46,847 nucleotides of DNA, from IMG/VR virus record IMGVR_UViG_3300034068_000817, positions 1 through 46,847 of that record. One strand, written 5' to 3'. The stretch is from a virus. This document shows positions 277 through 46,753 of this stretch, one piece after another. The position numbers were made by a program, and so were the translations under genes. The notes below the pieces were generated by a model that saw only the letters and a program-made list of their open reading frames with translations, had not been told where the DNA came from and did not search any database. How positions within the stretch are numbered: the first letter of the stretch is position 1; every line of letters begins with the position of its first letter.

Positions 277-298
277 CTTTATTTACTCAAAAAGAATC

Positions 299-327: not shown

Positions 328-362
328 GTTATAATAAAGTTTCCTTTTGATAAAACCTCTGA

Positions 363-375: not shown

Positions 376-387
376 CAAATAAAGTAT

Positions 388-2353: not shown

Positions 2354-2357
2354 TAAA

Positions 2358-6694: not shown

Positions 6695-6699
6695 AAAAT

Positions 6700-8096: not shown

Positions 8097-8115
8097 ACAA
8101 AAAAAAATAAAAAAA

Positions 8116-9057: not shown

Positions 9058-9059
9058 TT

Positions 9060-10163: not shown

Positions 10164-10168
10164 TAAAA

Positions 10169-10930: not shown

Positions 10931-11510
10931 GATTAATGGAGTATTAAGAAATACGATAGATAAAATAGAACAGACCTATCAAAAATATATGATAGATAAG
11001 ACGGAGGGTTTAGAGGATGAAGAATCTTTTAAATATGAGATATCATTACCGGTTGATAGTTTAAACCTTAGAAATCACTTTAAATTCCAAACAGATGAAG
11101 AATTATATTCATTTTTATATGAGGAGTTTCCGATGGAAATATTTGGGCATTCTCAGTCATCTGAATATTCAACATTTAATGATTTAAATGATTTGTATAT
11201 GAATTTAAGAGATAATCACGAACTATTAATAGTTTCAGATGAAATGGGTAGGTCTAAACCGGCATCGTTATTCTTCTTATCTAAATTTGGATGTCAGTTA
11301 GAAAAGGTGAAATTTTATAGTAATATTACAATAAATTCTATGTGGGATGAAATTGATGTTTTACTTACGGCCAACCCTACACTATTATTAGAACATCCGA
11401 CAGATAAAACAGTAATAAAATATCAAACGGAATACAATAAACATATTACCACGGACTATTCAATTACAAGTTTTAAAGAATTAGAAAGTGAATTAACAAA
11501 ACTATTATAA
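10914..11510 (+). CDS. HAD-like protein with degenerate active site
   Basis: 198 residues. The opening IAIEINGVLRNT aligns with the HAD motif I (hydrophobic-DxDGVL), but the nucleophile Asp is Glu and the second Asp is Asn. LLIVSDEMGRSKPASLFFLSKFG (about 100-122) resembles the motif II/III region of nucleotidase-type HAD proteins. An acidic insertion (TEGLEDEESF) precedes the cap-like region. If this alignment is right, it is not a classical phosphatase and may bind or regulate. It overlaps phoH, and its TAA overlaps the next ATG. Confidence 0.5.
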   Translation: MRIAIEINGVLRNTIDKIEQTYQKYMIDKTEGLEDEESFKYEISLPVDSLNLRNHFKFQTDEELYSFLYEEFPMEIFGHSQSSEYSTFNDLNDLYMNLRDNHELLIVSDEMGRSKPASLFFLSKFGCQLEKVKFYSNITINSMWDEIDVLLTANPTLLLEHPTDKTVIKYQTEYNKHITTDYSITSFKELESELTKLL

Positions 11511-11785
11511 TGTTAAAAGTATTAGGAGAACATTACTATTTAGATTTAGACAAAATTGATGATTATGTCCAAATTAAAGATTCAACACCGACAAGCGGTG
11601 TAACTGACACGACACACATCAGTATCATAAAATACGAAAGTATTAAATTAATGTTGGAAATCATTATGGATGAACCAGAAGAGATTGATGAACAACTAGG
11701 TTCAAAAGGAACAAATAATTTATCAATACCATTTAAGATAGCGTTTAATACGTTATTATATAAAAACTTATTAAATACAATATAA
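11510..11785 (+). CDS. Small hypothetical protein (91 aa)
   Basis: I do not recognise a family. The protein is acidic and probably a compact alpha/beta domain: a beta-rich start (LKVLGEHYYLDLDKIDDYVQI), a short Thr-rich loop, then helices ending LSIPFKIAFNTLLYKNLL. It starts on the TAATG of the upstream HAD-like gene and is followed by a glycosyltransferase after one base, so it is co-translated with the operon. Confidence 0.65.
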   Translation: MLKVLGEHYYLDLDKIDDYVQIKDSTPTSGVTDTTHISIIKYESIKLMLEIIMDEPEEIDEQLGSKGTNNLSIPFKIAFNTLLYKNLLNTI

Positions 11786-11786
11786 T

Positions 11787-12842
11787 ATGAATCAAGAACA
11801 AATTACAAAATTAGAGTTGTCAATTGAGACTATGAAGAATAAGAAATCAAGAATTTATCTTATTGCTCAAGACACAAAAGGTAACGCCAAAGCATCGATT
11901 GCTTATATCTATAGATTAGGGTTGGCATTATTAAATGCTGGTTATAATCCAATTATTTTACACGAAACACCTGATTATACTGGTGTGTCAGAATGGTTAG
12001 GTGAAGAGTATATGTCTTTACCACATAAATCTATTGAAGGTCAAAACTTGGAAGTTTCACCTGAGGATTTAATCGTTATTCCAGAATTATACGGATTCGT
12101 AATGTCTCAAATCACTAACTTACCTTGTGGTAAAATTGTGTTATGTCAATCTTACGACTATATGTTGGAGACATTACAGCCAGGACAAACTTGGAACGAT
12201 TTAGGATTTTTAAAATGTATCACAACTTCTGAGAAACAAAAAGAACAAATCGAATCTGTTATGAGAAATGTATCGTTTGATATTTTAACCCCTTATATTT
12301 CAGATAAATTTATCCCTCAAAAATTCCCATCAAAACCAATCATCACGGTCCATTCAAGAGACCAACGAGATACTGTAAACCTAATTAAATCGTTTTATAT
12401 TAAATTCCCCCAATATCGATGGATTACATTTAGAGATATGAGAAGCTTAACTGAAAAAGAGTTTGCGGCTGGTTTAGATGAATCTTGTTTATCGGTTTGG
12501 ATTGATGAATCAAGTGCTTACGGAACATTCCCATTAGAATCTATGAAATGTGGTGTTCCTGTGTTGGGATTAGTACCTAATTTAGTACCTCAATGGATGG
12601 GTGAAGATAATGGGTTATGGATTAACAATAAAATACAATTAGTTGATTTCATTGCTGATTATTTACAAAATTGGTTAGAGGATAATGTGAATGAAAACTT
12701 ATTCATTGAAATGAAAAAAACTGTTGATTCATTACCAACCAAAGAGACTTTTGAAACTGAATCTGTAAAATTATTTAGTAGGTATTTGTTAACAAGACAA
12801 GAATCATTTACAGAACAATTATCTAAACTACAAACAATTTAA
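11787..12842 (+). CDS. Glycosyltransferase, GT-B fold
   Basis: 351 residues. The N-terminal domain starts with a helix followed by RIYLIAQDTKGNAKASIAYI, and includes DLIVIPELYGFVM and a domain-joining segment SFDILTPYISDKFIP. The C-terminal domain opens IITVHSRDQRDTVNLIKSF and ends in CLSVWIDESSAYGTFPLESM followed by KCGVPVLGLV, which is the ExxxxG/PLExMxxG donor-binding region of GT4-type enzymes. The fold is well supported, the sugar is not. It is spaced 1 base from the preceding gene and 7 from the next. Confidence 0.78.
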   Translation: MNQEQITKLELSIETMKNKKSRIYLIAQDTKGNAKASIAYIYRLGLALLNAGYNPIILHETPDYTGVSEWLGEEYMSLPHKSIEGQNLEVSPEDLIVIPELYGFVMSQITNLPCGKIVLCQSYDYMLETLQPGQTWNDLGFLKCITTSEKQKEQIESVMRNVSFDILTPYISDKFIPQKFPSKPIITVHSRDQRDTVNLIKSFYIKFPQYRWITFRDMRSLTEKEFAAGLDESCLSVWIDESSAYGTFPLESMKCGVPVLGLVPNLVPQWMGEDNGLWINNKIQLVDFIADYLQNWLEDNVNENLFIEMKKTVDSLPTKETFETESVKLFSRYLLTRQESFTEQLSKLQTI

Positions 12843-12849
12843 GAACAAG

Positions 12850-13662
12850 ATGGAAGAAACTACAAAATTTGATGTATCGGTAATTTTACCAATTAAATCA
12901 TCCAAAGTAAGAAATTTTGACGAATACTTTAAAAAGGCTATTGATTCGTTACAAATACAAAAAACAGAAATAAATGAACTTGTTATTGTTCACACTAATG
13001 AAACTTCTTTGGTGGAATACTTAAACGAGTTTGACTTCGGTAGTTTACCGGTAGTTAAAGTTGAGTGGACCAAAGAACCAAATTATTCAGCTCAAATCAA
13101 CTACGGTGTTAGAAGTGCTAAATCAACGTGGGTATCATTGTTCGAGTTTGATGATGAGTATTCATCAATTTGGTTTAAGAATGTTTTAAAATATTCTGAG
13201 ATATACACTGACGTGTCAGCGTTTTTACCAATAGTTGTTGATGTTGATAGTGATACAAAATTTGCGGGATTTACAAATGAGGCGACATTCGCAGCTAATT
13301 TCACACCTGAAATGGGTATCCTAACAAACGAAACGTTAATGGATTATCAAAATTTCCAACTATCGGGGGTTGTGATTAAAAAAGAATCGTTTATTGATTA
13401 TGGTTTATTAAAACCATCATTTAAATTAACATTTGGGTATGAATTCTTTTTAAGAATGACTTATAACTCAATAAAAATTATGTCAATACCAAAAATTGGT
13501 TACAAACATATGAATTTAAGAGAAGGCTCTATTTTTTGGAACTATAAAAATGGTGATGATGCTATATCACCTGATGAGGTTAAATTTTGGGTAGAGTCAG
13601 CAAAAAAAGAATTTTTCTTTATTAACGACAGAGCCATAAAATACGAATCACAAGAATCGTAA
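12850..13662 (+). CDS. Glycosyltransferase family 2-like
   Basis: 270 residues. VSVILPIKSSKVRNFDEYF, NELVIVHTNE and NYGVRSAKSTWVSLFEFDDE (about residues 78-97) follow the GT2 order; the FEFDDE segment stands where the DxD metal motif normally lies. FGYEFFLRMTYNSIKIMSIP is the acceptor-proximal region. Its stop overlaps the start of the late sigma factor gene (TAATG), so sugar genes and the sigma factor are on the same transcript unless an unseen internal promoter exists. Confidence 0.72.
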   Translation: MEETTKFDVSVILPIKSSKVRNFDEYFKKAIDSLQIQKTEINELVIVHTNETSLVEYLNEFDFGSLPVVKVEWTKEPNYSAQINYGVRSAKSTWVSLFEFDDEYSSIWFKNVLKYSEIYTDVSAFLPIVVDVDSDTKFAGFTNEATFAANFTPEMGILTNETLMDYQNFQLSGVVIKKESFIDYGLLKPSFKLTFGYEFFLRMTYNSIKIMSIPKIGYKHMNLREGSIFWNYKNGDDAISPDEVKFWVESAKKEFFFINDRAIKYESQES

Positions 13663-14411
13663 TGACTGAATTAGTTAATTTGACAGGAGACACCAGCGTT
13701 GAGTTAAAGAAGAAAGGTAGAAAACCGACCCAATTAAATTATTTTGATGTTCGTGAAGAATTAGCTGTTGTTCGATTTTTACAAACCGAGTGTCACCACG
13801 AAAGAAATAAAATTTATAATGAGTTTTTATTAAAACCTTTGGATAAGATGATATCTTCAATTATTAGAAGATACAAATTATATAGAAAAGATATGGACTT
13901 TAATGAAATCCATACAGACACTCACTCATTCTTAATAACAAAAATTGATAAGTTTAAGCCTTCCAAAGAAAAGAAGGCTTACTCTTATTTTGGTACCATA
14001 TGTAAGAATTATCTTATGGGACAAATCATCAAAGACCAAAAAGAAACTAATCGAAAAATCTCATATGAGGATATTTCATCTAGTTTGGAAAATGATGAAG
14101 GGTTTGCATATTATATTGAAAATGATAATATAGACTCCGAAAGGGTCATCTACCATTTTTTAATCAAATTAGATTTATTCATTAAAAATGAAAATCTAAG
14201 TGAAAACGAGGTAAAACTCGGACAGGCATTATACGATTTATTCGATAATTATGAAAATATTTTTGTTGGTAACGACAATAATAAATTTAATAAGAATATT
14301 ATATTACTCTCATTAAGAGAAATGACTAATCTGTCAACCAAAGAAATTAGAGGGTCTATGAAGAAATACAAAAATATGTATTTTGACCTAGTTCAAACTA
14401 TGGTTAAATAA
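13662..14411 (+). CDS. 55: Late-transcription sigma factor, T4 gp55-like
   Basis: 249 residues, compared with about 185 in T4 gp55. The central part looks like a minimal sigma region 2: LDKMISSIIRRYKLY, then HTDTHSFLITKIDKF, then KKAYSYFGTICKNYLMGQI. The last corresponds to the AFAYFTxIxxNAFxxxI segment of gp55 proteins that contacts the RNA polymerase clamp. No region 4 is obvious; the C-terminus (LSLREMTNLSTKEIRGSMKKY) could be a small HTH or the clamp-binding tail. It is the obvious candidate to recognise the TATTTATWNNTAAAA elements before structural genes here. It starts on the TAATG of a glycosyltransferase gene. Confidence 0.72.
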   Translation: MTELVNLTGDTSVELKKKGRKPTQLNYFDVREELAVVRFLQTECHHERNKIYNEFLLKPLDKMISSIIRRYKLYRKDMDFNEIHTDTHSFLITKIDKFKPSKEKKAYSYFGTICKNYLMGQIIKDQKETNRKISYEDISSSLENDEGFAYYIENDNIDSERVIYHFLIKLDLFIKNENLSENEVKLGQALYDLFDNYENIFVGNDNNKFNKNIILLSLREMTNLSTKEIRGSMKKYKNMYFDLVQTMVK

Positions 14412-20918: not shown

Positions 20919-22145
20919 TTAAAACATATCTTCAAGACTATGTAAGTGTTTCTTAACGATATCCAAGTCACTAATATCCGTATAAGTCATTCCTCGACTC
21001 TTTAAGGTTTGTATTTCTCTATGTAGGTGTAATGTCATTTGTCTAACCTGATTTGACATTGATGGATAATTTTTAATCATATTATCCAAGTAATAAACAT
21101 CAGATGGTAGTTTTAACACATCACCAATTTTCTTGAACCATTCTTTCCCGTAATTATCGGCATCCATTTCCATCTCCCAATAAATTTTGAAGAACTCCTC
21201 AAAGTCTTCAACATCCCCCATGTAGGAATTCTTTAAATCAAACTCACTCATTTGTTGTTCGTGTCTTAATTCGTGAAATAAGATATATACAAACGACGCA
21301 AAATTAGGAAATAATTCAGGAGAACATAAGATAATTGCCTTATTTGTTCTAACTCCTTTAAACCCTGTGTTACAAGAATTTATTATTTTTATTATATATC
21401 CTCTCTCCTGAATGAAATCTTTTATCTTTTCAGCAATTAAATTATATTCCTTATGTTTATCCTCAGGAATATCTTTTCTAAACTTATTAATGACTCTCTC
21501 GTAATTAGAGGTCGGCTTTATCTCATTTGGGACGATATCTTCTAAAAGGGTGTCTTTGGTTATCTCAACCCATTCTTTAACCGTGTTTACATCGTATGTG
21601 TCAATGTGATATGTTCCTGTCATCCCTTTTTCCCACATACCAACAACGGTGTCTTTATTACCCTTTAATGTTTTACCTTTACTTTTTTTGTTAAATTCAG
21701 ACTCAAGGGTATTAACAAACGGGTCTAACTCAGATTTTATCCATTTTCTTAAACCAAGTTCAATAGGACCATTATATTCTCCCGCACTATTAGCTGTTGT
21801 GTTTTCTTTTATTGGTACTATTTTTTTATCTTTACCCGGTGTCTGATTGATGTTGTTCCCATCTTCATCACTATTAGTCGATTCAGGATGTTTTTTCATA
21901 TAATTAGTTATTTTTTTTGCCTTACCCTCAATTTTTTTAATCTGTTTCTTTGTCTCATCCATAGAACCATCATAACTATCATACTCCAATTCAGGACTAT
22001 TATATTTAGAAACATCAATTGTAAAAGGACCCATTTGAGATTTTTTGAATTTTCTAATACCCATCTGCATTGGTGCAATATAAGAACCTCTTCCCCCACC
22101 ATCACTTGTGGCCTCGTTAATCTGTATTTTGATATTTTTATTCAT
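20919..22145 (-). CDS. HExxH zinc metallopeptidase, candidate head-internal protein
   Basis: 408 residues. HELRH (291-295) in a hydrophobic helix (ASFVYILFHELRHEQQ) is the zinc motif, and YWEMEMDADNYG (322-333) gives a third acidic ligand in the E-x-x-x-D/A pattern of ImmA/SprT-like zincins. Residues 20-41 and 122-143 are a diverged duplicate (GSYIAPMQMGIRKF / GEYNGPIELGLRKW). The N-terminus reads KIQINEATSDGGG, close to the INE|A segment of the major capsid protein here, so cleavage by the gp21-type protease after E11 is plausible. It could then be packaged and injected. Function of the duplicate is unknown. Confidence 0.7.
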   Translation of the reverse strand: MNKNIKIQINEATSDGGGRGSYIAPMQMGIRKFKKSQMGPFTIDVSKYNSPELEYDSYDGSMDETKKQIKKIEGKAKKITNYMKKHPESTNSDEDGNNINQTPGKDKKIVPIKENTTANSAGEYNGPIELGLRKWIKSELDPFVNTLESEFNKKSKGKTLKGNKDTVVGMWEKGMTGTYHIDTYDVNTVKEWVEITKDTLLEDIVPNEIKPTSNYERVINKFRKDIPEDKHKEYNLIAEKIKDFIQERGYIIKIINSCNTGFKGVRTNKAIILCSPELFPNFASFVYILFHELRHEQQMSEFDLKNSYMGDVEDFEEFFKIYWEMEMDADNYGKEWFKKIGDVLKLPSDVYYLDNMIKNYPSMSNQVRQMTLHLHREIQTLKSRGMTYTDISDLDIVKKHLHSLEDMF

Positions 22146-24259: not shown

Positions 24260-26089
24260 TTATCTCAACTCTTTTAAGTCAAATGTTCTTACACCATCAA
24301 CAGTGATACGACCATAGAAACGGTTATTTACCATTTTTTTCGCGTATCTTGTCATAATTCCTTTAATTGGTGTGAAATTAAAAGGGTTATACATTGTTGG
24401 AGTTAATTGTAATGGTACATACGGTGCGTAGATGTAACCTGTGTCTAACAATGATGTTCCTTTGTGTCCTACTAACACTGTGTTAGCTGGGAAGTAAGGG
24501 TCACGGTAAACTTGGTAACGTCCTGCTAATGTTCCAACTCTTTCAATACCCATATTGTATTGGTCTTGCTCAGGAGACGCGTTAGATACGTGGAAGTATT
24601 CTAAATCGTCAAAGATTGCAGAGATTTCAGAAGAAACAACAATCCAGTTAGCACCACCTCTTAATGTAGATTTGTGGATTTGAGCAGATAATTGGTTAAT
24701 CGCAGTAATCAATGTTTGGTTCCAATCTTTTTGAGTGTAGTTAGTCGTGTTAGCGATTCTTCTCCATCCGTTGTAATCCCATCTTAAAGTCCAAGCTGCA
24801 CCTTTACGTAAATCTCTTAAGATTTCACGGTCGATTTCAGCTGCAACTTGTTCAGATAATAAAGCTGTTAATTCAGCCTCAGCATCGATGTTGTGGAAAG
24901 CCGCAACGTCTTGAGCTAACTCAGGAGACCATTGTGCTCTTAATTTTCTTTCAGTAACAGAAACTGTAACAGAATCTAAGTCGAAAGAAACCTCACCGAT
25001 TTTATCTTCAAATTCTAATTCTTCGTAACGTCTGAAAGCTGCTTGGATAGGTGCGTTAGCTCCTGTTCCTGAGAATGCCGCTGTTGTAATAGTAACTCCT
25101 GTATAACCATCTAAAGTTCCAGCACCACATCCTGCACAAACAGGTTGTTGAGCGTCAACTTCTAAATAGATAACACCAGTACCATCACATATGTTTTTAA
25201 ATGAACCTCCGTTACCATCTGATGCCCAATTTGTGGTAGTTGTATTACCATATTGTGCAATTCCTTGACCATATTTTTGAGTAACAACTCTAAATAATAA
25301 GTTAGTAAATGTTGATGTTCCTAACTGAGTCGCAACAGTTGCGTTATTTGTGTATAATTTAAGACCTGATAAAAATTCTTCAGTATCCATTTCATGTCCA
25401 TTTGGTCCGATTAATTTTCCCTCACCTGTACTAGAGAAACCTGACATCGCTACTAATATTTTTCTAAATTCACCTGCTGTATATGCTGACGCAACTAAAC
25501 TTGAATTCGACCAAGAAACTGTTTGGCAATTAGCCGTAATTGCTGACCATCTACCTTTTGAATAATCAAATAATCCTTCAGGGTCTAAACCTGGTTCAGT
25601 CCCTTCATAGAACAAATCATAAAGATTTTTTTGGTAAGCTCCCGCTCCTGTTCCATAACCTTGGTTTGCACCATTGTTAGCTGGAGAATAGTTACCAGGA
25701 GAACCGATTGGTGCGTAATGTTCACCTGATTGGGTAGCATCTCCACCGCTATAACCTTGAATTTTAGGTACGAAGAAGAACAATTTACCGATTGGTAAGT
25801 TCATAGCTTGTACTGATACGATTTCATTCGCAAGTAATTTAGAGAATACTCTTCTTACGATAGGGAATACAACCGTTTCAAATGAACCGTTTGAACCTTC
25901 ACCTGTCGCTTCGTTTATTAAGAAAGACGCTTGGTTCTCATATAACTGAGCTACGTTTTCTCTCATGTGTCCTTTAAGACCTTCTAGGAATCCTAATTTA
26001 TCCCATTTGTTGATTGTGTCTTCTTTGATAACTTTAAGGTGTTTTAACCCGATGTTACCAACTAATCCTGATTCTAATAATGCTCCCAT
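24260..26089 (-). CDS. 23: Major capsid protein, T4 gp23-like
   Basis: 609 residues. PIVRRVFSKLLANEIVSVQ followed by AMNLPIGKLFFF (76-106) parallels T4 gp23 'MVRRAIPNLIAFDICGVQPMNSPTGQVFAL'. RKLRAQWSPELAQDVAAFHN and IDAEAELTALLSEQVAAEID (381-420) parallel its 'SRALKAEYTLELAQDLKAVHGMDADAELSGIL'. A prohead-protease site (I/L)xE|A lies at INE60|A61, the position of T4's LTE|A after residue 65, so the first 60 residues are probably removed on maturation. Residues 110-350 form an insertion with four Cys (188, 301, 318, 321). It is longer than T4 gp23 (521). No promoter motif lies before it; it is read with the scaffold gene. Confidence 0.93.
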   Translation of the reverse strand: MGALLESGLVGNIGLKHLKVIKEDTINKWDKLGFLEGLKGHMRENVAQLYENQASFLINEATGEGSNGSFETVVFPIVRRVFSKLLANEIVSVQAMNLPIGKLFFFVPKIQGYSGGDATQSGEHYAPIGSPGNYSPANNGANQGYGTGAGAYQKNLYDLFYEGTEPGLDPEGLFDYSKGRWSAITANCQTVSWSNSSLVASAYTAGEFRKILVAMSGFSSTGEGKLIGPNGHEMDTEEFLSGLKLYTNNATVATQLGTSTFTNLLFRVVTQKYGQGIAQYGNTTTTNWASDGNGGSFKNICDGTGVIYLEVDAQQPVCAGCGAGTLDGYTGVTITTAAFSGTGANAPIQAAFRRYEELEFEDKIGEVSFDLDSVTVSVTERKLRAQWSPELAQDVAAFHNIDAEAELTALLSEQVAAEIDREILRDLRKGAAWTLRWDYNGWRRIANTTNYTQKDWNQTLITAINQLSAQIHKSTLRGGANWIVVSSEISAIFDDLEYFHVSNASPEQDQYNMGIERVGTLAGRYQVYRDPYFPANTVLVGHKGTSLLDTGYIYAPYVPLQLTPTMYNPFNFTPIKGIMTRYAKKMVNNRFYGRITVDGVRTFDLKELR

Positions 26090-26125: not shown

Positions 26126-27583
26126 TTATTTAATTTTTGTCATTAAATCTTTCATTCTTAAGAACTGTGGATTCTCATATGTTTTAGACTCAATTAAGTT
26201 AACTGCTCCTGTAGAAGGTGATTTTGCGATTGTTCTTTCAATTGACTCATTCATAGATTGAGATTTAGTTCCTGCGGATAATTCATTTTTAACAACTTGA
26301 TATAAATTTTTAGATTCTTTAATAGTTTCAACACCATCAAATCTTCTTAAAATGTTAATTTTTTCTTGTTTTGATGTTGAATGTTCTGTAAACAAACGTG
26401 TAGCGTAAGCTAAGTTTGAATTGAATATTGCAACCTCATTTAGTTTACTTCTAAAAACATTAAGTGCTTTTCTATACTCTTCATTTTTTTCTCTAAGGAT
26501 TTGTAATTCTGAGTTAGAAGTACTTTCTTTAATAGCTGTATTAAATTTAGAGTGAGCTCTTGGTTTTGGTAAACCACCTTTTCTGAAATTAGACCCTGAA
26601 CCTAAAGTTCTAACGGCCTCTTTTGTTTCAGATTTTTTAACAGTTGTAGGTTTTTCAGTGTATTGTTCTTTAGACTCTACTTTTTTAACCATTTTGTTTT
26701 TACCAAGTGAGCTTCCAGCATTTTCACCATCTTTATAATCAAATTTTGCTTTACCTGTACCAACAGATTTAGGAGCCTCTTTCATTTTAGTTTTGAATCC
26801 CGTTCCTTGATTAGGTTTTGCATTGTATTTGAATTTCGGACTTCCGATTCCAACTCCCTTAGGTTTGATTGTAGATTTTTTAGATTCATAAATAGATTCC
26901 TCAAATTCTTCATCTTCGTCATCCATTTCAATTTCATAAACGATTTCTTCATCGTCCATTTCATCTTCTTCGTCAAACTCATCAAAATCCATTTCGTCGT
27001 CGTTTCCAAACATTCTTTCAACAATAGATTCGATTGATTCATCATCACCATCTTCTTCTTGTTCGTCTAATTCTTCCTCATCTTCTTCGCTTTCACCAAC
27101 AATCATATACTCTTTACCAGTTTCCTCATCTTTAAGGTGAGTGTTTCCTTTGTCGTCTTTTGTTACAACAATATTATCGTCTGGTCCCATAAGTTGAAAT
27201 ACTCTAAGTACTTCTTCATCGTCAGCGTCAGTTAAATCGATGGTGTCGTCTTCGTCATCGAAGTCCATATCTTCTTCGTCATCGAAGTCCATATCTTCTT
27301 CGTCGTCCATATCATCAGTATCCATATCATCACCATCTTCGTCTGAATCATCATCACCCATATCAATATCGGCAATATCATCAGAACCCATTGGTTCATC
27401 CATTTCAACGTCATCGGTTTCAATCTCATCATCATCTTGTTCTGATAAAGATTCTTTTACTAGGTCTTTGATTTCTTGTTTCATTGTAGAAGCAAGTATT
27501 CCTTTTGCATTTTCAGCTACCGCTTCTTCCAAATTTTTCATTTGGATGATAGCCTCTTCAACTAAAGATTTTTCTTTTGCCAT
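26126..27583 (-). CDS. 22: Prohead core/scaffold protein, T4 gp22-like
   Basis: 485 residues. It sits directly upstream of the capsid gene as T4 gene 22 does. The N-terminal helix (VEEAIIQMKNLEEAVAENAK) is followed by an extremely acidic stretch (about 50-240, Asp/Glu/Met repeats such as EEDMDFDD twice). Then come a basic Gly/Lys-rich linker and a C-terminal coiled coil (LQILREKNEEYRKALNVFRS). This is the composition of scaffolds that fill the prohead and are degraded by the gp21 protease. Two late-type promoter motifs precede it and a terminator separates it from the genes upstream, so scaffold plus capsid form their own strong unit. Only position and composition support the gp22 call. Confidence 0.75.
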   Translation of the reverse strand: MAKEKSLVEEAIIQMKNLEEAVAENAKGILASTMKQEIKDLVKESLSEQDDDEIETDDVEMDEPMGSDDIADIDMGDDDSDEDGDDMDTDDMDDEEDMDFDDEEDMDFDDEDDTIDLTDADDEEVLRVFQLMGPDDNIVVTKDDKGNTHLKDEETGKEYMIVGESEEDEEELDEQEEDGDDESIESIVERMFGNDDEMDFDEFDEEDEMDDEEIVYEIEMDDEDEEFEESIYESKKSTIKPKGVGIGSPKFKYNAKPNQGTGFKTKMKEAPKSVGTGKAKFDYKDGENAGSSLGKNKMVKKVESKEQYTEKPTTVKKSETKEAVRTLGSGSNFRKGGLPKPRAHSKFNTAIKESTSNSELQILREKNEEYRKALNVFRSKLNEVAIFNSNLAYATRLFTEHSTSKQEKINILRRFDGVETIKESKNLYQVVKNELSAGTKSQSMNESIERTIAKSPSTGAVNLIESKTYENPQFLRMKDLMTKIK

Positions 27584-27974: not shown

Positions 27975-28700
27975 TTAATATCCCAAATAATCGTTTAATT
28001 TTTTCATTAAGTCAAGCGATTTGTTTCCGGAATCTCCAACGTGTCTTTCAACGCTCATTTTTTTCTCTTCTTCTAAGTTCTCATCGTATAGATGTTTATC
28101 CTCTTTATTTAAGAATAAGTACGCTCCCGGAGTGGATGGTGAAGATACTAAGTCAAAACAGATTAATTCAAAATCATCTTGTACTTCATTTTGTTCTCCA
28201 ATCTTTTTAAGGGAACCAACACCTCTTGATGAGATACCTAATGTAACTCCTTGTCTTAGGTAGTTTGCCGCCAAATCACCCTTTGTTGATACAATACCTC
28301 TTTCGTGGTATCCCGGTGATGTAAGTAGTTTTATCTTACCCATTAGGACATTACCTTCCCACCATATTTCAGTAATCATGTGAGCAACTCTATCTAAATC
28401 AATTAAAGATGATTCCGGGTGATTTAACTCGGATAGGGATGTACCCTTTTTAATCATTTTTTTATAGTTCTCAGCTTCTCTTTTTAATATACGTTCAGGG
28501 TATAATCTACCATTTCTATTTGGGGTATCATATTTTTGTAACACTGCATAAAATTCAAATGGTTTAGAGTGGTCTAACATTTCGCTAGATTCTCTAATTA
28601 ACGTTTCGTTACGATTATCCCTTGGGTTAACATAACCGGCGTCGTATTCAACAAGAATCCCCCTCCCTGACTCATTTGGTTGTAATATTTTTAAATTCAT
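27975..28700 (-). CDS. 21: Prohead maturation protease, T4 gp21-like
   Basis: 241 residues. After FEFYAVLQKYDTPNRNGRLY comes the family's GR-YP start. LSELNHPESS supplies the catalytic His (H94), GVTLGISSRGVGS the catalytic Ser (S157 or S158) and ELICFDLVSSPST a conserved Asp, in the order seen in gp21-type (herpesvirus-protease-like) prohead proteases. It would cut scaffold, capsid and internal proteins at (L/I)xE sites inside the prohead. It sits upstream of the scaffold gene as in T4, with its own late-type promoter. Confidence 0.9.
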   Translation of the reverse strand: MNLKILQPNESGRGILVEYDAGYVNPRDNRNETLIRESSEMLDHSKPFEFYAVLQKYDTPNRNGRLYPERILKREAENYKKMIKKGTSLSELNHPESSLIDLDRVAHMITEIWWEGNVLMGKIKLLTSPGYHERGIVSTKGDLAANYLRQGVTLGISSRGVGSLKKIGEQNEVQDDFELICFDLVSSPSTPGAYLFLNKEDKHLYDENLEEEKKMSVERHVGDSGNKSLDLMKKLNDYLGY

Positions 28701-32165: not shown

Positions 32166-34256
32166 TTACTTATTATGTGTTAAGACATTATTTGCAAAAT
32201 ACAAGTTACTATTATTAACGTCAATACTATAAACAGTTGTTAGTTCATTAATTTTAACTAATGATGTTATTTCAAACTCACTATTATCCATGTCTAACAA
32301 CATATTACCAACATTCAATTCTGAGGTGGTTCTAATATACCATATACCCTCTTGGTTAACAACGTGGTTATGTGAATCAGTGGATATTAACCTACCATTA
32401 TTAATACTTGTAACAGATTCCGCATCATATGAGGTGAAATTAATTACTGTGGATGTTGAATCAGTGTAATTCAATGTATCACTACTCCAAGAGTGCCATT
32501 CATTTGATTGTTGAGGCATTCCGGCAACATCAAGAGATTTAAGTACATCATTAAATTGAATATCTTGTATTAATTTAGTTGTCCCATCTTCTAATGTTAT
32601 TATAGTATCGGCAACAAGACAGGCACAAATAGTACAAGCGGAATCAAAAACCCCTGAAGTCACATGGCGTTTAAATCCATCATAATTATAATATCCAGTT
32701 GAGGCGGCCGCATATCCGGGACATCCGGTTTCTTCTTCTGTGACCTGTATAGTTGTTGCTGTGCAAAAATCAGCAGTATCTAAACACATGGTAAGTAATA
32801 ATAGACCAGTACAAGTGTCAGTTGATGCAGAAACAATACCTTCAAAAGGATAACTTATTACTGATGTTTGGGTTGGTGTTACCGTTGGTGTTACTGTTGG
32901 AGTATTAGTAGGTGTATTTGTAGGAGTAGTTGTAGGTGTATTAGTTGGAGTTACAGTATTTGTCGGCGTATTTGTAGGTGTATTTGTCGGAGTATTTGTT
33001 GGGGTTTTAGTTGGAGTTACAGTATTAGTCGGTGTATTAGTCGGTGTATTTGTCGGAGTATTTGTCGGAGTATTTGTTGGGGTTTTAGTTGGAGTTACAG
33101 TATTAGTCGGTGTATTTGTAGGTGTATTTGTCGGAGTATTTGTCGGAGTATTTGTTGGGGTTTTAGTTGGAGTTACAGTATTAGTCGGTGTATTTGTAGG
33201 TGTATTAGTCGGTGTATTTGTAGGTGTATTTGTTGGGGTTTTAGTTGGAGTTACAGTATTAGTCGGTGTATTTGTAGGTGTATTTGTCGGAGTATTTGTC
33301 GGAGTATTTGTTGGGGTTTTAGTTGGAGTTACAGTATTAGTCGGTGTATTAGTCGGTGTATTTGTAGGTGTATTTGTCGGAGTATTTGTCGGAGTATTTG
33401 TAGGAGTGTTTGTTGGAGTATTTGTTGGGGTATTTGTTGGGGTTTTAGTTGGGGTAATACTAGGTGTTGGAGTATTTGTTGGGGTATTTGTTGGGGTTTT
33501 AGTTGGGGTAATACTAGGTGTTTGAGTATTAGTCGGTGTATTTGTCGGAGTATTTGTCGGAGTATTTGTTGGTGTTGATGACGGAGACGCACCTGGTGTT
33601 AAAGTGTTAGTTGGTGTCTGAGTGTTAGTCGGAGTTATAGTTGGTGTTTGAGTAATTGTTGGAGTATTTGTAGGGGTTATTGTTGGAGTTTGAGTTTGAG
33701 TAATTGTTGGAGTATTTGTAGGGGTTATTGTTGGAGTTTGAGTTTGAGTTGGGGTTTGGGTGTTTGTTGGAGTTTGAGTTGGGGTTTGGGTGTTTGTTGG
33801 AGTTTGAGTATTTGTTGGAGTTATTGTATTTGTTGGAGTTATTGTAGGGGTTTGAGTATTTGTTGGTGTATTTGTTGGTGTTATTGTAGGGGTTTGAGTA
33901 TTTGTTGGTGTTATTGTAGGGGTTTGAGTATTTGTTGGTGTTATTGTAGGGGTTTGAGTATTTGTTGGTGTATTTGTTGGTGTTGGTACAGGAGCATTAC
34001 CTTCACTTACAGGAGTTTGTTTTGGGAAGTGTTTGGTAATGTTAGAGTTATTACCACCTTTAACAGTCAAAATCCCTTGACCTTCAACATTAAGTTTTGA
34101 GCCCGCAATAATATTACCTGATTTTTTTCTACTAACAAAACTACCACTTTTAAAATTGTTTTCAACAATAAAGTTGTTTGGTATAATTTCTTCGTTAAAA
34201 TCAAGATTTATATTTACAGAAACATCAATACTCCTCTTTCTATCTGAGATACCCAT
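32166..34256 (-). CDS. Thr-Pro repeat protein with C-terminal Hint (intein-like) domain
   Basis: 696 residues. Residues 1-90 form a small N-terminal domain. Residues 91-463 are almost pure Thr-Pro repeats ([12 protein letters not shown]), with a 26-residue higher-order unit starting VTPTKT at 309, 335, 361, 387 and 413. A Cys-rich linker (470-545) leads to a Hint domain: block [15 protein letters not shown] (C546), TDSH (626-629) as TxxH, and [20 protein letters not shown] ending in HN and a final Lys. Only one residue follows the terminal Asn, so splicing is impossible in the usual sense; N-terminal thioester cleavage is more likely. It lies between terminase and portal, where T4 has sheath and tube genes. 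Possibly a glycosylated surface fibre. Confidence 0.8.
32868..33986 (-). repeat. Tandem Thr-Pro coding repeat, 12-bp unit with 78-bp higher-order copies
   Basis: About 1.1 kb of degenerate 12-bp repeats coding PTNT-type units. Between about 32954 and 33332 they are organised in four 78-bp copies plus one shortened 66-bp copy (26 and 22 codons). Such repeats expand and contract by slippage or recombination. Other variants (QTPT, ITPT) dominate towards the N-terminal side. Confidence 0.9.
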
Positions 34257-36067: not shown

Positions 36068-37456
36068 TTAAAATCCTAACGAAGATAAATCAATATCATC
36101 TAAGTCGTCTAAGTCATCAAATCCGTAATCCCCATAATTATCATTGTCATCCTCATCATCTTCGTCATCAGACATTTTTGATTCGTATTCGTGTTTTTTA
36201 AGGATTTCAACGATTTCAGTAACCATTCTATTTATTACCTCTTTTGCTTCAGGTTTATCAGCCATAATGGCTTTCGCTAATACAATAAAATCTTTCGCCT
36301 CTAATTGAGACAATTTCATAAATAAGTATTGTTGAAGGTGTCTTTGGTCTTCTTCATATAATTTATCAGGCCAAGATTCTCTGAATTTTTCCCAAAATAT
36401 TGGACCCAATCTTGAATCCCATATTTCCGCTGGTAATGTATCTTCAGCACCAACAACCATACTTCTTTGAACTGGGTCGTTTGGTAATCCTTGGTCTCCA
36501 TATAACGAATAAATACCTTTAACTATCTCGTGAACTAATAAAGGAAATGTAAACGCTTTCGCTTTAATTGTTGGTGGGTCAGTTTCAGGGTCAGATTCTG
36601 ATTGTCCCATTTGACCACCACCACCACCGGCCATACCTTCCATATCAGGATATAACCAATATAAGTGTTCCATTAGTGATTGTGTTACACCATATAAATT
36701 TAATAAGTTTGGGTCTAATCTATTTATCTCATCACTAACTAATGTATACATATGACCTCCTTTAAATGCTGCTCCTTGAACTAATGAATTAATTAGTCTT
36801 CTTTTCGCTTTCTCTAAATTAAATTTTTCCATAGAATCCATAAAGTCTTCTATTTCTTCTTGATGTTCTTCACTCTCTTTGAATGCTTCTTCTACGTCTT
36901 CTTCTTCCGGTTCTTCTGGTTGCGTTTGCATTCCTTCCGAAGCTCCCATTGGACCATTAACTAATTCAACATCAAATTGTAATTGTCCCTCAGGTATACC
37001 CAATTCTTTCATAACTAAATTAACGGCCAAGGTTTCAAGATATTCTTTATTTTGAACCTCGACTTGTTTAATTTGTCGTAAACTACCCATTACAGAACTC
37101 ATTAATCCCATCATTGGATTATCTCCTTGGATTGGTGTGGTGTCACCTAAAAATCTTCTTACTTTATCAACAGAATCCTTAAATCGTTGAGATGTTATCA
37201 TTTCGACAAAATCTCTATCACCATCTTGAGGTAATGCTGGATGCTCTGCGTATGGAGTTTGTCTTTGATTAATTTGTCTTTCAATACCCGGCTCCATTCT
37301 TTCAGGTCCTTCATAACTAACAGGAGCCTCGTTTAAACGACGATTAATTTCGTTTAACATAGTTTGTTGGTTACCCGTCAATCCTTCATTAACTAATTTT
37401 TTATCTAAGTCACTTTTGACTTTCAATATTTTTTCCATTTTTAAATTTACACTCAT
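36068..37456 (-). CDS. Acidic putative head-associated protein (462 aa)
   Basis: 462 residues, family not recognised. The N-terminus is helical and holds several (L/I)xE steps, including RRLNE43|A44, resembling prohead-protease sites. The middle has a Glu-rich segment and a Gly-rich loop (MAGGGGGQMG), with an ordered region IKAKAFTFPLLVHEIVKGIY. The last 40 residues are Asp-rich (SDDEDDEDDNDN). Position just upstream of the large terminase and the candidate processing site suggest a capsid-internal or packaging role. It starts two bases after the stop of the preceding gene. Confidence 0.6.
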   Translation of the reverse strand: MSVNLKMEKILKVKSDLDKKLVNEGLTGNQQTMLNEINRRLNEAPVSYEGPERMEPGIERQINQRQTPYAEHPALPQDGDRDFVEMITSQRFKDSVDKVRRFLGDTTPIQGDNPMMGLMSSVMGSLRQIKQVEVQNKEYLETLAVNLVMKELGIPEGQLQFDVELVNGPMGASEGMQTQPEEPEEEDVEEAFKESEEHQEEIEDFMDSMEKFNLEKAKRRLINSLVQGAAFKGGHMYTLVSDEINRLDPNLLNLYGVTQSLMEHLYWLYPDMEGMAGGGGGQMGQSESDPETDPPTIKAKAFTFPLLVHEIVKGIYSLYGDQGLPNDPVQRSMVVGAEDTLPAEIWDSRLGPIFWEKFRESWPDKLYEEDQRHLQQYLFMKLSQLEAKDFIVLAKAIMADKPEAKEVINRMVTEIVEILKKHEYESKMSDDEDDEDDNDNYGDYGFDDLDDLDDIDLSSLGF

Positions 37457-38352: not shown

Positions 38353-38734
38353 ACTCTAATACGATATCTCTTTCGTATAATTTATCTTTAACCGATTGTT
38401 CTGTTTCTCCAAACTTAAAAACCAATCTTCTTTGACGAGTAAAGTCAACATCTTCACTTTCGTTTTCCCAACATAATGCAACTATATCATCCATTGAATC
38501 TATCATCGAGAAATAGTCAGAGTTTTGAATTACTGACATTGTGATTTGGTCATTCTTCAAAACTCCTACTGTTTTTATGTGTTCTATATCCGGTGGGAGT
38601 GGGTAACCATTAGATGGTTTCGATTCCCAAGCCTCACCCCAAATATCTTCCGAACTATCCGAGAAAATAAATTCATATATGTTGTCACCTTTATAATTAG
38701 GTCCTAATTCATTAACATATATTAAATAACTCAT
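38324..38734 (-). CDS. Hypothetical protein (136 aa)
   Basis: 136 residues, acidic, a likely alpha/beta domain: MSYLIYVNELGPNYKGDNIY, IFSDSSEDIWGEAWESKPSN, and VKDKLYERDIVLEFEKKIEY at the end. No family recognised. It overlaps genes on both sides (one base with the 442-aa gene, 11 or 29 bases with the Lys/Pro-rich gene), so it is part of the same late unit that leads to the terminase. The aromatic-rich central part suggests a globular structural or accessory protein. Confidence 0.6.
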   Translation of the reverse strand: MSYLIYVNELGPNYKGDNIYEFIFSDSSEDIWGEAWESKPSNGYPLPPDIEHIKTVGVLKNDQITMSVIQNSDYFSMIDSMDDIVALCWENESEDVDFTRQRRLVFKFGETEQSVKDKLYERDIVLEFEKKIEYEH

Positions 38735-40062
38735 TATATAATCTGACCTTTTGTATTAACTCTTAATTGTTCATCATTCATTTCAAATACCAAGTTTTGT
38801 TTGTTTGTTTTCCCAACCAATTTAGCGTTTGGATATTTTTCCATCAATTTTCTAGCACCAACTTCTTGTGAAATACTTTCAGACAATTGTTTGATTTTAT
38901 TAATTTTAAATTTTTTATTTTCAGAAATTAATTTAGATTGTCTTTTTTTAGATTCTAATAATTGTTTTTCTTTATTATCTAATTTAAAATATCCTTCGAT
39001 AATTTTATCTACTTTTGATTCTGAGAAAATCCCTTCAATCATATCTTCAATATGACCTGAGTGTTTAGAGTCAATATCAGGATGATTTAAACTTCTATGT
39101 TTTGGGTGTCTTGGTTTAAAATCAATTTCTTCAAAATCATCATCATTATAATCGTCAAATTTTGATTTAATATCAAAATCATCAAATCCTTCACCCATTT
39201 CACCTTCTGGTGATACAGGAACTTCTTCCGCTCCAAAATCAGGTTCTTCATCACCCATTTCATCAGGATTAAAATCTCCCATACCTTCTTCATCTTCGGT
39301 ACCTTCAATTTTGTTAACAATTTCTTCTTTATCTTCATCATCGATAGACTCTAAATCTATTGCGGATAATATAGAATTAATAACATATTTTGAATCCTTA
39401 GATGTCATTTCTTGTTGACCTTCCTCAGTTTCTTGGAATGCTCTTAATTTTTGAGCTAATTTACCTGTTAATTTTTGAATAGATTTCAAAGTAACTTCTT
39501 CATTATCGTCATCTTCCATATCATCTCCTAAATCCATATCCTCAGGAGCCGGTTCTGGCATTCCCTCAGGTGATGGTGCTGGAGCGGGTGCTGGTGATGG
39601 TGCAGGTGCCGGAGCAGGTGCCGGAGCAGGTGCCGGAGCAACTTGTTCGTCAGTTTCTCCACCTTTCATTTTTAAAATATATTTAGTTGCATCATTTTCA
39701 CTTTCGTAAAATAAATTAACATTTTTTTCATTACCTTCATTTACGTTAACTTCTTTAGCAACTAAATTAAGACGTTTTAATGCCTGAGAATATGAAGAAT
39801 AATATTTTCTATTTTTCATAGGTTCCATATAATCAAACTCATCTGTTGATTCCGTTAAGTTACATTTAAGGATATAACCACTTTTTTCCTTATCTATTCT
39901 ATAAGTTTTACCGTTAGCTAAAACTTTAGTATATTCAGTAGATTTATCCTCATTAATAGGTTTTGGAATATTCTCCTTATATCGAGCGATTTCCATAATA
40001 CGTTGGATTTTCTCCATTCCTTGTAGTTTTTCGCTACCAATCGGTTTTAAATTGTTTCCCAT
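38734..40062 (-). CDS. Acidic Pro-Ala repeat protein, candidate head-internal protein
   Basis: 442 residues. Residues 17-39 (MEKIQRIMEIARYKENIPKP then INED) resemble the N-terminal module of the proteins at 43629 and 44001 (QRI-L/M, later (L/I)xE). Residues about 142-170 are a Pro-Ala repeat. Residues 170-320 are very acidic (Asp/Glu/Met), and the C-terminal 120 residues are a basic coiled coil followed by a beta segment (ISENKKFKINKIKQLSESIS). Composition and leader suggest a prohead core or packaged protein cleaved after E38. It opens the unit running to the terminase, with a late-type motif 38 bases upstream. Confidence 0.6.
   Translation of the reverse strand: MGNNLKPIGSEKLQGMEKIQRIMEIARYKENIPKPINEDKSTEYTKVLANGKTYRIDKEKSGYILKCNLTESTDEFDYMEPMKNRKYYSSYSQALKRLNLVAKEVNVNEGNEKNVNLFYESENDATKYILKMKGGETDEQVAPAPAPAPAPAPAPSPAPAPAPSPEGMPEPAPEDMDLGDDMEDDDNEEVTLKSIQKLTGKLAQKLRAFQETEEGQQEMTSKDSKYVINSILSAIDLESIDDEDKEEIVNKIEGTEDEEGMGDFNPDEMGDEEPDFGAEEVPVSPEGEMGEGFDDFDIKSKFDDYNDDDFEEIDFKPRHPKHRSLNHPDIDSKHSGHIEDMIEGIFSESKVDKIIEGYFKLDNKEKQLLESKKRQSKLISENKKFKINKIKQLSESISQEVGARKLMEKYPNAKLVGKTNKQNLVFEMNDEQLRVNTKGQII
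39555..39645 (-). repeat. Pro-Ala codon repeat
   Basis: Six-base GGTGCC/GGAGCA-like alternation encoding a run of Ala-Pro dipeptides with occasional Ser-Pro. It is probably an extended spacer between the N-terminal module and the acidic region. Confidence 0.7.
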
Positions 40063-43628: not shown

Positions 43629-43976
43629 TTATTTTTTACCAATTCTAGACACACAATTGTTAGCATTTGGGAATTTTTTATTTAACATATCAATACTACT
43701 TTGCCATTTTGGGTTTTTACGTAAATCCCATTCTTTTCCGGTTTTTAAATTGTGTGCGAACCAAATACCTTCACATCTAGCATATGCGTATGTGTTATCA
43801 CCTGGTATTACATTAGAATATTTTACACCAAATTTTGATTGGAAATTAGGGGTACCCATAACATTTGTTGAGGGAACAGATGAATCTTGTTCTGATAATA
43901 CATTTTTATTACCTGAGTGCATTTCAAGTATTCTTTGTTTCTCATCTTGTGAGATGTTGTTAAATAAATTTTTCAT
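43629..43976 (-). CDS. Small protein (115 aa) with shared QRIL...LSEQ N-terminal module
   Basis: 115 residues. Residues 10-30 (QDEKQRILEMH, then VLSEQ) match the start of the neighbouring 154-aa protein and, more weakly, the 442-aa protein at 38734. The rest is a compact domain with YAYARCEGIWFAHNLKTGKE, KNPKWQSSIDMLNKKFPNAN and two Cys. Cleavage after LSE29 by the prohead protease is possible, leaving an 86-residue mature domain. No family recognised for that domain. It follows the 154-aa gene by 24 bases in the same unit. Confidence 0.6.
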   Translation of the reverse strand: MKNLFNNISQDEKQRILEMHSGNKNVLSEQDSSVPSTNVMGTPNFQSKFGVKYSNVIPGDNTYAYARCEGIWFAHNLKTGKEWDLRKNPKWQSSIDMLNKKFPNANNCVSRIGKK

Positions 43977-44000
43977 TTTTTTGTTTTTTTATTATTATTT

Positions 44001-44465
44001 TTATTCTCCAATTAAACTATTTAAATCCATTGGTGTTGAATTCCCACCTCCTACAACGGCAGCACCTTGGACTTGTGCGTTTTTATTTGTCGGAACATTT
44101 GCTTCGACAGGTTTTTTAATTACTTCTGATGACGCATCACCTCCAACAACAGTATTTACTGGTGGTACGGCAGTTTTAACGACTGTACTATCAGTTTTAG
44201 GTAATTTATCAAACAACGCTTTTATTGCAGTAATTCCTTTTGTAGTTTTAGATTCAACCCAATTAGGGTATTTTGAGGCCATAACCCCTTTACCTTTAAA
44301 TAGATATTTTCCATTCTCAAATTTATAATCAAAAGATTTATCATTTGTTGTTATAACAACCGGTTGAACAGTCTGTTCGCTCAAATATTGTCTTTTTGTT
44401 GCACTTTCGTGGATATTCAAAATTCTTTGTCTTTCCTCTTCGTCTAAGAAATATAGTTTTTTCAT
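44001..44465 (-). CDS. Protein (154 aa) with shared QRIL...LSEQ N-terminal module
   Basis: 154 residues. Residues 8-31 (DEEERQRILNIHESATKRQY then LSEQ) are the clearest copy of the shared N-terminal module. The middle is a small beta domain (KSFDYKFENGKYLFKGKGVM followed by ASKYPNWVESK). The last 60 residues are low complexity, Val/Pro/Thr/Gly rich. The leader ends in LSE30|Q31, like an (L/I)xE prohead-protease site. A late-type motif lies 21 bases upstream, in keeping with a packaged late protein. Function unknown. Confidence 0.6.
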   Translation of the reverse strand: MKKLYFLDEEERQRILNIHESATKRQYLSEQTVQPVVITTNDKSFDYKFENGKYLFKGKGVMASKYPNWVESKTTKGITAIKALFDKLPKTDSTVVKTAVPPVNTVVGGDASSEVIKKPVEANVPTNKNAQVQGAAVVGGGNSTPMDLNSLIGE

Positions 44466-44471
44466 AAAATA

Positions 44472-44486
44472 TTTTATTTATAAATA
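44472..44486 (-). promoter_or_regulatory. Late-type promoter motif TATTTATAAATAAAA
   Basis: It starts 21 bases before ATG 44465, just downstream (minus strand) of the peptidase terminator. This variant also contains TATAAATA in direct orientation. Confidence 0.55.
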
Positions 44487-45376: not shown

Positions 45377-46753
45377 TTAATATATTCTACGATTTTTTTT
45401 ACTTTCAAATAAATCGGGTGAAACTAAGAAATTTTCAAATTCTTCTTCATTATAACTCCTATCTTCCATCCCCACAGTACCGTCTCTGTTGAATACCTGA
45501 ATAAGTATTCTATTATTTTTTGGGTTAATTCCCCGGTAAAAAAATTCTCTTCCGGATTTAGTCTCGTATCGTTTATTAATTTTGAATCTATCATCAATTC
45601 GTTTGTATAATTCAGCATACTCATAGATGTCTTCATATTGGGATTCATCCTCAAGTTTCCCCATAATGTTATCTAAGTATCTACCGGCGTCCCTATCAAA
45701 TGACTCTTGGTCAAAATCCACACAATCAACATCGTAAATAAAATCACCCCAACCAGCAAGGTTCATTTCTGAACCAAGTTTAAATAATAATTCACTAATA
45801 GTTAATGTTTTATCTTTCATTGAATCATATAAAGACAATAATATACCAACACTTGTAAAATATTCTGTAAAACAATATGTTTTAAAAATGCCATAGTTAT
45901 AAAACACGTCACATAAATCATCTTTAATCATTTTTTCAAACCCTCTGGTTTTACATTGATTTTGTTCCGCGGTATATTCATAAATAATAGATTCAATTTC
46001 AGTCTCAAACATATCAAGTAATTTTCCACCCGCAGATGATTTTTGTTCGTCAGTTTCTAACGTAACTGAACTAGGTTCTACAATTGATAGAATTTCTTTA
46101 ACCTTTTCAAGGTTTTCTTCATTAAATACGTTAAAAAAATATCCTTCACCAAAATCTTCTCTGGCTTGATAATCGTCTTCCCACTCATAGGTATCGTAGT
46201 TTCCTGTAATAGCATTATAATACCACATATCGTCATCACTAGGGTTGAATAATTGAATGTAATCACTATCATCATCAAACTTAATAATTATTTTACTTTT
46301 GAATGGCGCTTTCGGAGAGTATTTCAAATCATAAATCAATTCGTCAACATCCTCCAATTCACGACTACTAACTTCTTCACCATTGGCAATTTTAGTTAAT
46401 AATTCATAAGTTTTACCAACACCAATTAATTCACTTATTTGGGGTTTAATATCCTCAGATATATTATCAAAGAAATCAACTTTATTATCAAATTTACCAC
46501 CGTTCCAATTATAATACGATATTTTACCGTATTCATCTTTGAAAATCATATACGTTTTTAATCCGGATTCTGAGGACTCTTCTTTATTAACAATACAATA
46601 TAAATCACCATTCCTAAAATTTCTCCAATTATCGTGCATTTTATCCGGAGCGTAATATATGTAGGAATCGTAGTCCATAGGTTCTACAATTAACCAATCT
46701 TCATCTTCAAATATTATTTTAGATTCCCCGTGAGAGTCGTTTGTATTGGGCAT
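45377..46753 (-). CDS. Large hypothetical protein (458 aa), acidic and aromatic-rich
   Basis: 458 residues; no family I can name with confidence. The first 85 residues form a beta-rich domain (WLIVEPMDYDSYIYYAP, then WRNFRNGDLYCIVNKEES and TYMIFKDEYGKISYYNWNGG). A second aromatic, acidic beta region lies near 150-220 (KIIIKFDDDSDYIQLFNPSD). The C-terminal half is helical, with a Cys-containing segment MIKDDLCDVFYNYGIFKTYC. High Asp/Glu/Tyr content is unusual for a DNA-binding protein and could suit a DNA mimic or binding scaffold; that is speculation. A late-type motif precedes it by 24 bases. Confidence 0.6.
   Translation of the reverse strand: MPNTNDSHGESKIIFEDEDWLIVEPMDYDSYIYYAPDKMHDNWRNFRNGDLYCIVNKEESSESGLKTYMIFKDEYGKISYYNWNGGKFDNKVDFFDNISEDIKPQISELIGVGKTYELLTKIANGEEVSSRELEDVDELIYDLKYSPKAPFKSKIIIKFDDDSDYIQLFNPSDDDMWYYNAITGNYDTYEWEDDYQAREDFGEGYFFNVFNEENLEKVKEILSIVEPSSVTLETDEQKSSAGGKLLDMFETEIESIIYEYTAEQNQCKTRGFEKMIKDDLCDVFYNYGIFKTYCFTEYFTSVGILLSLYDSMKDKTLTISELLFKLGSEMNLAGWGDFIYDVDCVDFDQESFDRDAGRYLDNIMGKLEDESQYEDIYEYAELYKRIDDRFKINKRYETKSGREFFYRGINPKNNRILIQVFNRDGTVGMEDRSYNEEEFENFLVSPDLFESKKNRRIY

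What the first reader, a model, noticed from the sequence alone, without database searches (positions are those of the whole stretch)
43629..44465. Shared N-terminal leader QRI(L/M)...(L/I)xE in three proteins: candidate capsid-targeting sequence
The 115-aa and 154-aa proteins begin with (D/E)E(K/R)QRIL-x-(I/M)H...LSEQ and then diverge completely. The 442-aa protein at 38734 has EKIQRIMEIA...INED. T4 internal proteins carry a short capsid-targeting leader removed by gp21 at (L/I)xE. Here a shared leader attached to unrelated domains, ending in LSE or INE and driven by late promoters, fits a set of proteins packaged with the DNA and injected.
Basis: partly seen in the sequence, partly recalled or inferred. 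Interest (0 to 1): 0.75.

Follow-up and report, generated by a model that had tools for sequence, protein, structure and literature searches.

The report
Exchangeable leaders tagging phage head cargo
Large T4-like environmental phages, including this one, put short exchangeable address-label peptides that end in a head-protease cut site on many unrelated proteins, several of them cell-wall enzymes, which suggests that these proteins are loaded into the virus head, trimmed there and delivered with the DNA.

Summary
The 115-aa and 154-aa proteins share a ~30-aa leader ending LSE|Q. The 442-aa protein lacks this leader; it has only a chance-like QRIM and a conserved (I/V)NE site of its own. The post-leader parts are not wholly unrelated: the 154-aa protein has a small domain found in relatives, with a marginal match in the 115-aa protein.

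In related environmental phages this leader (type I) and an unrelated 22-aa leader MKKIIRLTESDLxRIVKRVIxE|Q (type III) sit on about 200 non-redundant cargos, 9-13 genes per 260-310-kb relative. Conservation stops at (L/I)xE. Orthologous cargos carry different leaders. Leader genes are enriched for late promoters. Cargo is specifically depleted in (L/I)xE. The phages encode an S77 (gp21-type) protease and a capsid protein with an invariant LINE|A site. Recognisable cargos are mostly wall-active (lysozyme, transglycosylase, LysM, PG-binding, L,D-transpeptidase, T6SS-effector-like, OmpA); no credible replication enzyme was found. Packaging, cleavage and injection remain inferred. This is a new variant of T4's capsid-targeting-sequence system.

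The parts
44376..44465 (-). Type I leader of the 154-aa protein, residues 1-30, MKKLYFLDEEERQRILNIHESATKRQYLSE; predicted cut E30|Q31
   Evidence: Conserved on unrelated cargos; AlphaFold2 model puts a helix at residues 9-28 ending at the predicted cut
44001..44375 (-). Cargo part of the 154-aa protein: small beta-beta-alpha domain (residues ~36-87) followed by a disordered Pro/Val-rich tail
   Evidence: Domain profile 36 bits; pLDDT about 83-92 over residues 41-80, tail below 50; no fold match in PDB
43890..43976 (-). Type I leader of the 115-aa protein, residues 1-29, MKNLFNNISQDEKQRILEMHSGNKNVLSE; predicted cut E29|Q30
43629..43889 (-). Cargo part of the 115-aa protein; marginal similarity to the same small domain
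44475..44486 (-). T4-type late promoter TATTTATAAATA upstream of the 154-aa gene (probably also serving the 115-aa gene)
27975..28700 (-). S77 prohead protease (gp21-type), candidate processing enzyme
   Evidence: PF03420 3.4e-24; T4 gp21 3.9e-20
24260..26089 (-). T4-like major capsid protein with conserved propeptide and site FLINE60|A61
   Evidence: phrog_138 2.4e-67; site invariant in 4 relatives
26126..27583 (-). Acidic scaffold-like protein (gp22 position) with a conserved SE|Q site near residue 48
   Evidence: identification by position and composition
38734..40062 (-). 442-aa protein named in the finding: not the same leader; conserved 38-aa N-terminus ending PINE|D (INE/VNE/INE in orthologs), possible separate substrate
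36068..37456 (-). 462-aa protein; orthologs differ in N-terminal length but keep (L/I)xE|(A/Q) just before the conserved part (LNE|APVSYEG; ISE|APIDYEG; IKE|QLDYGN)
20919..22145 (-). 408-aa protein with minimal leader MNKNIKIQINE|AT; (I/L)(N/K)E|AT kept in orthologs

Best explanation
The shared N-terminus is a capsid-targeting leader. Late in infection the 115-aa and 154-aa proteins are made as precursors whose helical leader docks them into the assembling prohead core. The S77 prohead protease then cuts after (L/I)xE, leaving mature cargo that starts with Q and stays in the head with the DNA. In related phages the same leader type, and at least one unrelated leader type (RLTESDL...VIxE|Q), are exchanged among many cargos. 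Recognisable cargos act on or bind the cell wall, so the likeliest purpose is delivery into the host with the DNA. Shown from sequence: leader sharing, boundary at (L/I)xE, leader exchange, late-promoter association, depletion of internal (L/I)xE in cargo, protease present. Inferred: docking, cleavage, packaging, ejection.
For: Leader conserved and cargo unrelated: (442 leader ORFs, 204 non-redundant cargos). Type III leader: among 43 non-redundant sequences position 20 is I/L/V in 37 and position 22 is E in 34, and conservation ends there. Type I: 80 of 92 have [LIV]xE within 20 aa after the conserved His (shuffles mean 24, max 34 of 500), P1' is Q in 50 of 80. [LI]xE in cargo obs/exp 0.86 vs 1.17 in other proteins, ratio 0.73 (bootstrap 95% 0.63-0.84); reversed motif 1.08, LxK 1.04, LxD 1.12, LxQ 1.06. 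Late promoter TATTTATA near 18/35 leader genes vs 166/1181 others, p=3e-7. Late-promoter genes carry N-terminal [LI]xE in 69/129 vs 212/854, OR 3.5, p=2e-10; at residues 61-97 OR 0.97. Leader exchange: OmpA-domain cargo 55% identical over 325 aa with type I (L105/L109) or type III (L034) leader; LysM protein 56% identical with short type I (G001_188) or type III (G005_62) leader. S77 protease. Capsid-protein site LINE|A invariant. Synonymous mismatch in type III leaders 0.35-0.52 against 0.51 expected at saturation, so conservation acts on the peptide. T4 precedent: PMC3012670.
Against: No virion proteomics, N-terminal sequencing or isolate. (L/I)xE is a short motif, and 12 of 92 type I leaders lack the strict form (several have LxxE|Q instead). 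No detectable sequence similarity between the type III leader and T4. The two window cargos have no known function. Endolysin-like cargos could serve lysis instead. In one search two related motifs ([LI]xxE 0.87, [VF]xE 0.89) lean the same way, though their intervals include 1. Gene starts in the relatives were called with a simple script.
Confidence: 0.75

Rival explanations
1. The proteins are targeted to the prohead and trimmed by the S77 protease, but act only inside the particle (core assembly, DNA condensation, head size) and are not delivered to the host.
For: T4 propeptides also have core-assembly and folding roles, as summarised in PMC10052503; most cargos have no recognisable enzymatic domain.
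Against: Recognisable cargos are lysozyme, transglycosylase, L,D-transpeptidase, LysM, PG-binding and T6SS-effector-like domains, which have no obvious use inside a head; cargos differ between close relatives at one locus.
Confidence: 0.12
2. The leader docks cargos onto another virion part (tail tube, baseplate or outer capsid) or onto host membrane, and the (L/I)xE ending is incidental or cut by another protease.
For: Tail-associated lysins are common in phages; some cargos match PHROGs 'tail associated lysin' and 'baseplate hub subunit and tail lysozyme'.
Against: Specific (L/I)xE depletion in cargo, sharing of the same site type with capsid protein and scaffold-like protein, variable leader length with a fixed (L/I)xE end.
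Confidence: 0.08
3. The leader is an inhibitory propeptide or localisation tag for late lysis enzymes, not a packaging signal.
For: Many PHROGs matches are named endolysin.
Against: Most cargos are not lysins; nine or more leader genes per genome is far more than lysis needs; the same leaders sit on wall enzymes and on other proteins.
Confidence: 0.05

Closest known systems
T4 capsid targeting sequence and internal proteins (IPI, IPII, IPIII, Alt) with gp21 protease
   Same: Short N-terminal leader shared by otherwise unrelated head proteins and a gp21-type protease; T-even internal proteins are described as highly diverse with only a conserved CTS (PMC3012670). IPII and IPIII both start MKTYQEFIAEA in the T4 record.
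   Different: Longer, helical leaders of at least two unrelated families with no detectable similarity to T4's; 9-13 tagged genes per relative; recognisable cargos are wall-active, whereas T4's are described as defence proteins against host attack enzymes (PMC3012670).
SPN3US and phiKZ-type giant phage head proteins and protease gp245
   Same: Prohead protease cuts after a P3-P2-P1 motif ending in Glu and removes N-terminal propeptides, two of them only 20 and 24 residues, from head proteins (PMC10052503).
   Different: Motif there is AxE; the passages read describe no leader shared and exchanged among many unrelated cargos.
P1 Dar proteins (DarB N-terminal capsid-targeting sequence)
   Same: N-terminal residues suffice to direct a reporter to the capsid; the packaged proteins defend incoming DNA (PMC9024508).
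   Different: Different phage group; no exchangeable short leader family is described in the passages read.

Membership tests
T4-type capsid-targeted internal protein system | Phage encodes an S77/gp21-type prohead protease | tested here: met
   window 27975-28700, PF03420 3.4e-24; T4 gp21 by phmmer in window, G001, G003, G005
T4-type capsid-targeted internal protein system | Short N-terminal leader shared by otherwise unrelated proteins of one phage | tested here: met
T4-type capsid-targeted internal protein system | Leader ends in (L/I)xE with conservation stopping there | tested here: met
T4-type capsid-targeted internal protein system | Genes expressed late | tested here: met
   Indirect: late-promoter motif enrichment p=3e-7; the 154-aa gene has TATTTATAAATA
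T4-type capsid-targeted internal protein system | Leader is cut in the prohead and mature protein is in the virion | not testable with these tools
   Needs virion proteomics; only indirect support from (L/I)xE depletion in cargo
T4-type capsid-targeted internal protein system | Mature protein enters the host with the DNA | not testable with these tools
   Needs infection experiments
T4 CTS sequence family (descent from the T4 leader itself) | Sequence similarity to the T4 leader MKTYQEFIAE | tested here: not met
   Type III profile finds only a chance-level match in T4 (E 0.055); type I compared by eye only. So it works like the T4 system but is not shown to descend from its leader

The most novel reading that the evidence does not exclude
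A widespread group of large T4-like phages uses several unrelated, freely exchanged leader peptides as a general loading code for the head, so that each phage carries a changing set of ten or more injected effectors, many aimed at the cell wall and some related to type VI secretion effectors; the head works as an effector delivery device.
Probability: 0.55. Interest if true: 0.85.

Novelty: new variant of a known kind. Interest (0 to 1): 0.72.

Why it matters
If right, a short leader profile plus (L/I)xE becomes a way to read the injected protein set of large uncultured phages straight from sequence, gives a functional class to hundreds of unknown phage proteins, and offers new capsid-loading tags. 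It also makes directly testable what large phages deliver together with their DNA and why so many wall-active domains are among the cargo.

Tried and rejected
Third protein as a sharer of the leader: rejected, no profile hit. Leader in annotated phage records: none found by tblastn with the leader or a leader protein, nor by profile in the four phage records picked as near relatives by capsid protein (the same profile matched in all 19 environmental records); the type III profile gave weak matches in LR756508 only (best E 9e-4). Cellular origin: only 5 hits in the genome collection, all in metagenome-assembled bins; one of them (L286) carries a terminase homolog, so at least that one looks like a mis-binned phage. 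DNA-level repeat or recent recombination as the cause of leader similarity: rejected, synonymous sites near saturation. Exact TATAAATA as late promoter was uninformative; TATTTATA was informative. Fold of the post-leader domain: no PDB match. Literature text searches for the leader peptides: none. PHROGs names 'head maturation protease', 'integrase' and 'anti-repressor' among type III cargos were not traced to a member in two follow-ups.

Full report
What is in the window. The window is a fragment of a large T4-like phage: terminase, portal, major capsid protein, acidic scaffold-like protein and an S77 prohead protease lie on the minus strand. Between a ClpA/B-type ATPase and an M20-type peptidase lie two short genes, 44001-44465(-) (154 aa) and 43629-43976(-) (115 aa). 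Both start with a leader of about 30 residues ending LSE|Q. BLASTP of the two proteins aligns only residues 1-31, E=3e-4. The third protein named in the finding (442 aa, 38734-40062) does not carry this leader: neither leader profile finds it, and QRI[LM] alone is a 4-residue match. Its orthologs keep their own N-terminus ending INE, VNE, INE, so it may be a separate substrate of the same protease.

The leader is real and mobile. Searches with the two proteins return IMG/VR contigs that match over the first 20-41 residues and then, with few exceptions, stop matching. A leader profile brings in more, and every one of 19 records searched whole has one to six matches. Across all loci held, 442 leader ORFs were found, 204 non-redundant by cargo. 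In alignments of 86 type I and 82 type III proteins the consensus is sharp through the leader and nearly featureless after it.

A second leader type. Three longer relatives were read through (G001 308 kb, about 90% identical to the window in many proteins; G003; G005). Besides type I they carry MKKIIRLTESDLxRIVKRVIxE|Q on many unrelated proteins. Counting both types, 11, 13 and 9 leader genes were called in G001, G003 and G005. A further short form, MNLQENIxRIK..M, occurs on a few proteins.

The leader ends at a gp21-type cut site. In type III, position 20 is I/L/V in 37 of 43 and position 22 is E in 34 of 43; the residues after it vary. In type I, 80 of 92 have [LIV]xE within 20 residues after the conserved His, against a shuffle mean of 24 and maximum of 34; the next residue is Q in 50 of 80. 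Spacing between helix and site varies while the site stays. The phage's own capsid protein has an invariant (F/Y)LINE|A in the N-terminal region where T4 gp23 is cut, the scaffold-like protein keeps SE|Q, and other proteins of the head-gene region keep (L/I)xE|(A/Q) just before their conserved part although their N-termini differ in length.

Leaders are exchanged. An OmpA-domain protein is 55% identical over 325 residues between L105/L109 (type I leader) and L034 (type III leader), the alignment starting just past the leader. A LysM protein is 56% identical between G001_188 (short type I) and G005_62 (type III). Another family differs in leader between G003_117 and G005_353. Synonymous positions of type III leaders differ at 0.35-0.52, against 0.51 expected at saturation, so the peptide is what is conserved.

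Late expression. TATTTATA lies within 60 nt of 18 of 35 leader genes and 166 of 1181 others, Fisher p=3e-7. Without using the leader profiles, genes with this motif close upstream have an N-terminal [LI]xE in 69 of 129 cases against 212 of 854 for other genes (OR 3.5, p=2e-10), and no such association exists at residues 61-97 (OR 0.97). That set includes leader genes.

Cargo avoids the cut site. After the leader, [LI]xE occurs at 0.86 of its shuffled expectation in cargo but 1.17 in other proteins; the ratio is 0.73 (bootstrap 95% 0.63-0.84). The reversed motif, LxK, KxL, LxD and LxQ give 1.01-1.12; [LI]xxE and [VF]xE give 0.87 and 0.89 with intervals that include 1. This is what exposure to an (L/I)xE-specific protease would select; it does not prove exposure.

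What the cargos are. Pfam over 168 leader proteins (a few of them with weaker, short-form leaders) finds PG_binding_1, LysM, SLT, phage lysozyme (2.5e-27), YkuD, Tlde1, TseH-like, glucosaminidase, OmpA and annexin (1e-6). The remaining matches are weak or uninformative; the only names that hint at nucleic-acid enzymes, AAA_23 (3e-4) and DUF3670 (0.003), are weak and probably low-complexity or chance. PHROGs names are mostly endolysin; single weak matches named head maturation protease, integrase and anti-repressor were not traced. Orthologs of T4 gp41, gp61 and gp43 found in the relatives have no leader. The two window cargos have no assigned function: the 154-aa one has a small domain that in relatives precedes L,D-transpeptidase-like and other domains, and the 115-aa one matches it marginally. 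The AlphaFold2 model shows a leader helix at residues 9-28 and a well-predicted small domain after the site, without a PDB match.

Mechanism and comparison. T4 uses a short capsid targeting sequence to load diverse internal proteins into the scaffolding core (PMC3012670); SPN3US removes N-terminal propeptides after AxE (PMC10052503); P1 DarB has an N-terminal capsid-targeting sequence (PMC9024508). The present system works like T4's. It differs in having at least two unrelated exchangeable leaders, many tagged genes per genome, and mostly wall-active recognisable cargo. No descent from the T4 leader was detected. Text searches for the leader peptides found no paper, in a library that lacks most subscription journals.

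Limits. No experiment shows packaging, cleavage or injection. The loci are metagenomic and gene starts were called by script. The host is unknown. Of the five hits in the genome collection, all are in metagenome bins and one carries a phage terminase homolog.

Noticed in passing
window 32166-34256 (-): 696-aa protein between portal and terminase with a long TNTPTNTPT repeat and a C-terminus ([13 protein letters not shown]...NNVLTHNK) that reads like a Hint/intein-type domain; Pfam gave no match.
   Followed up: partly
window 24260-26089 (-): The capsid protein's 60-residue propeptide is almost identical in four relatives while the residues right after LINE| vary.
   Followed up: partly
L005, L013, L084, L267 leader proteins: Annexin-like GxGT(D/N)E repeats in leader-bearing phage proteins; PF00191 matches 3 of 86 type I proteins, best 1e-6.
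   Followed up: partly
window 1-13700 (+): Run of glycosyltransferase-like and sugar genes including a UDP-GlcNAc 2-epimerase (PF02350 3.8e-99) and a dUTPase (1.6e-19).
   Followed up: no
L234, L231, L245, L214, L274: Rows of several small genes close together that all start with the type III leader but have unrelated cargos.
   Followed up: partly
G005:C1:172210-174146: dUTPase-like gene split by sequence that reads like an intein end.
   Followed up: no
window 45377-46753 (-): 458-aa protein without leader whose G005 relative (G005_252, E 2e-23) reads MKVIKLTESDL..., so orthologs seem to gain or lose the leader.
   Followed up: no
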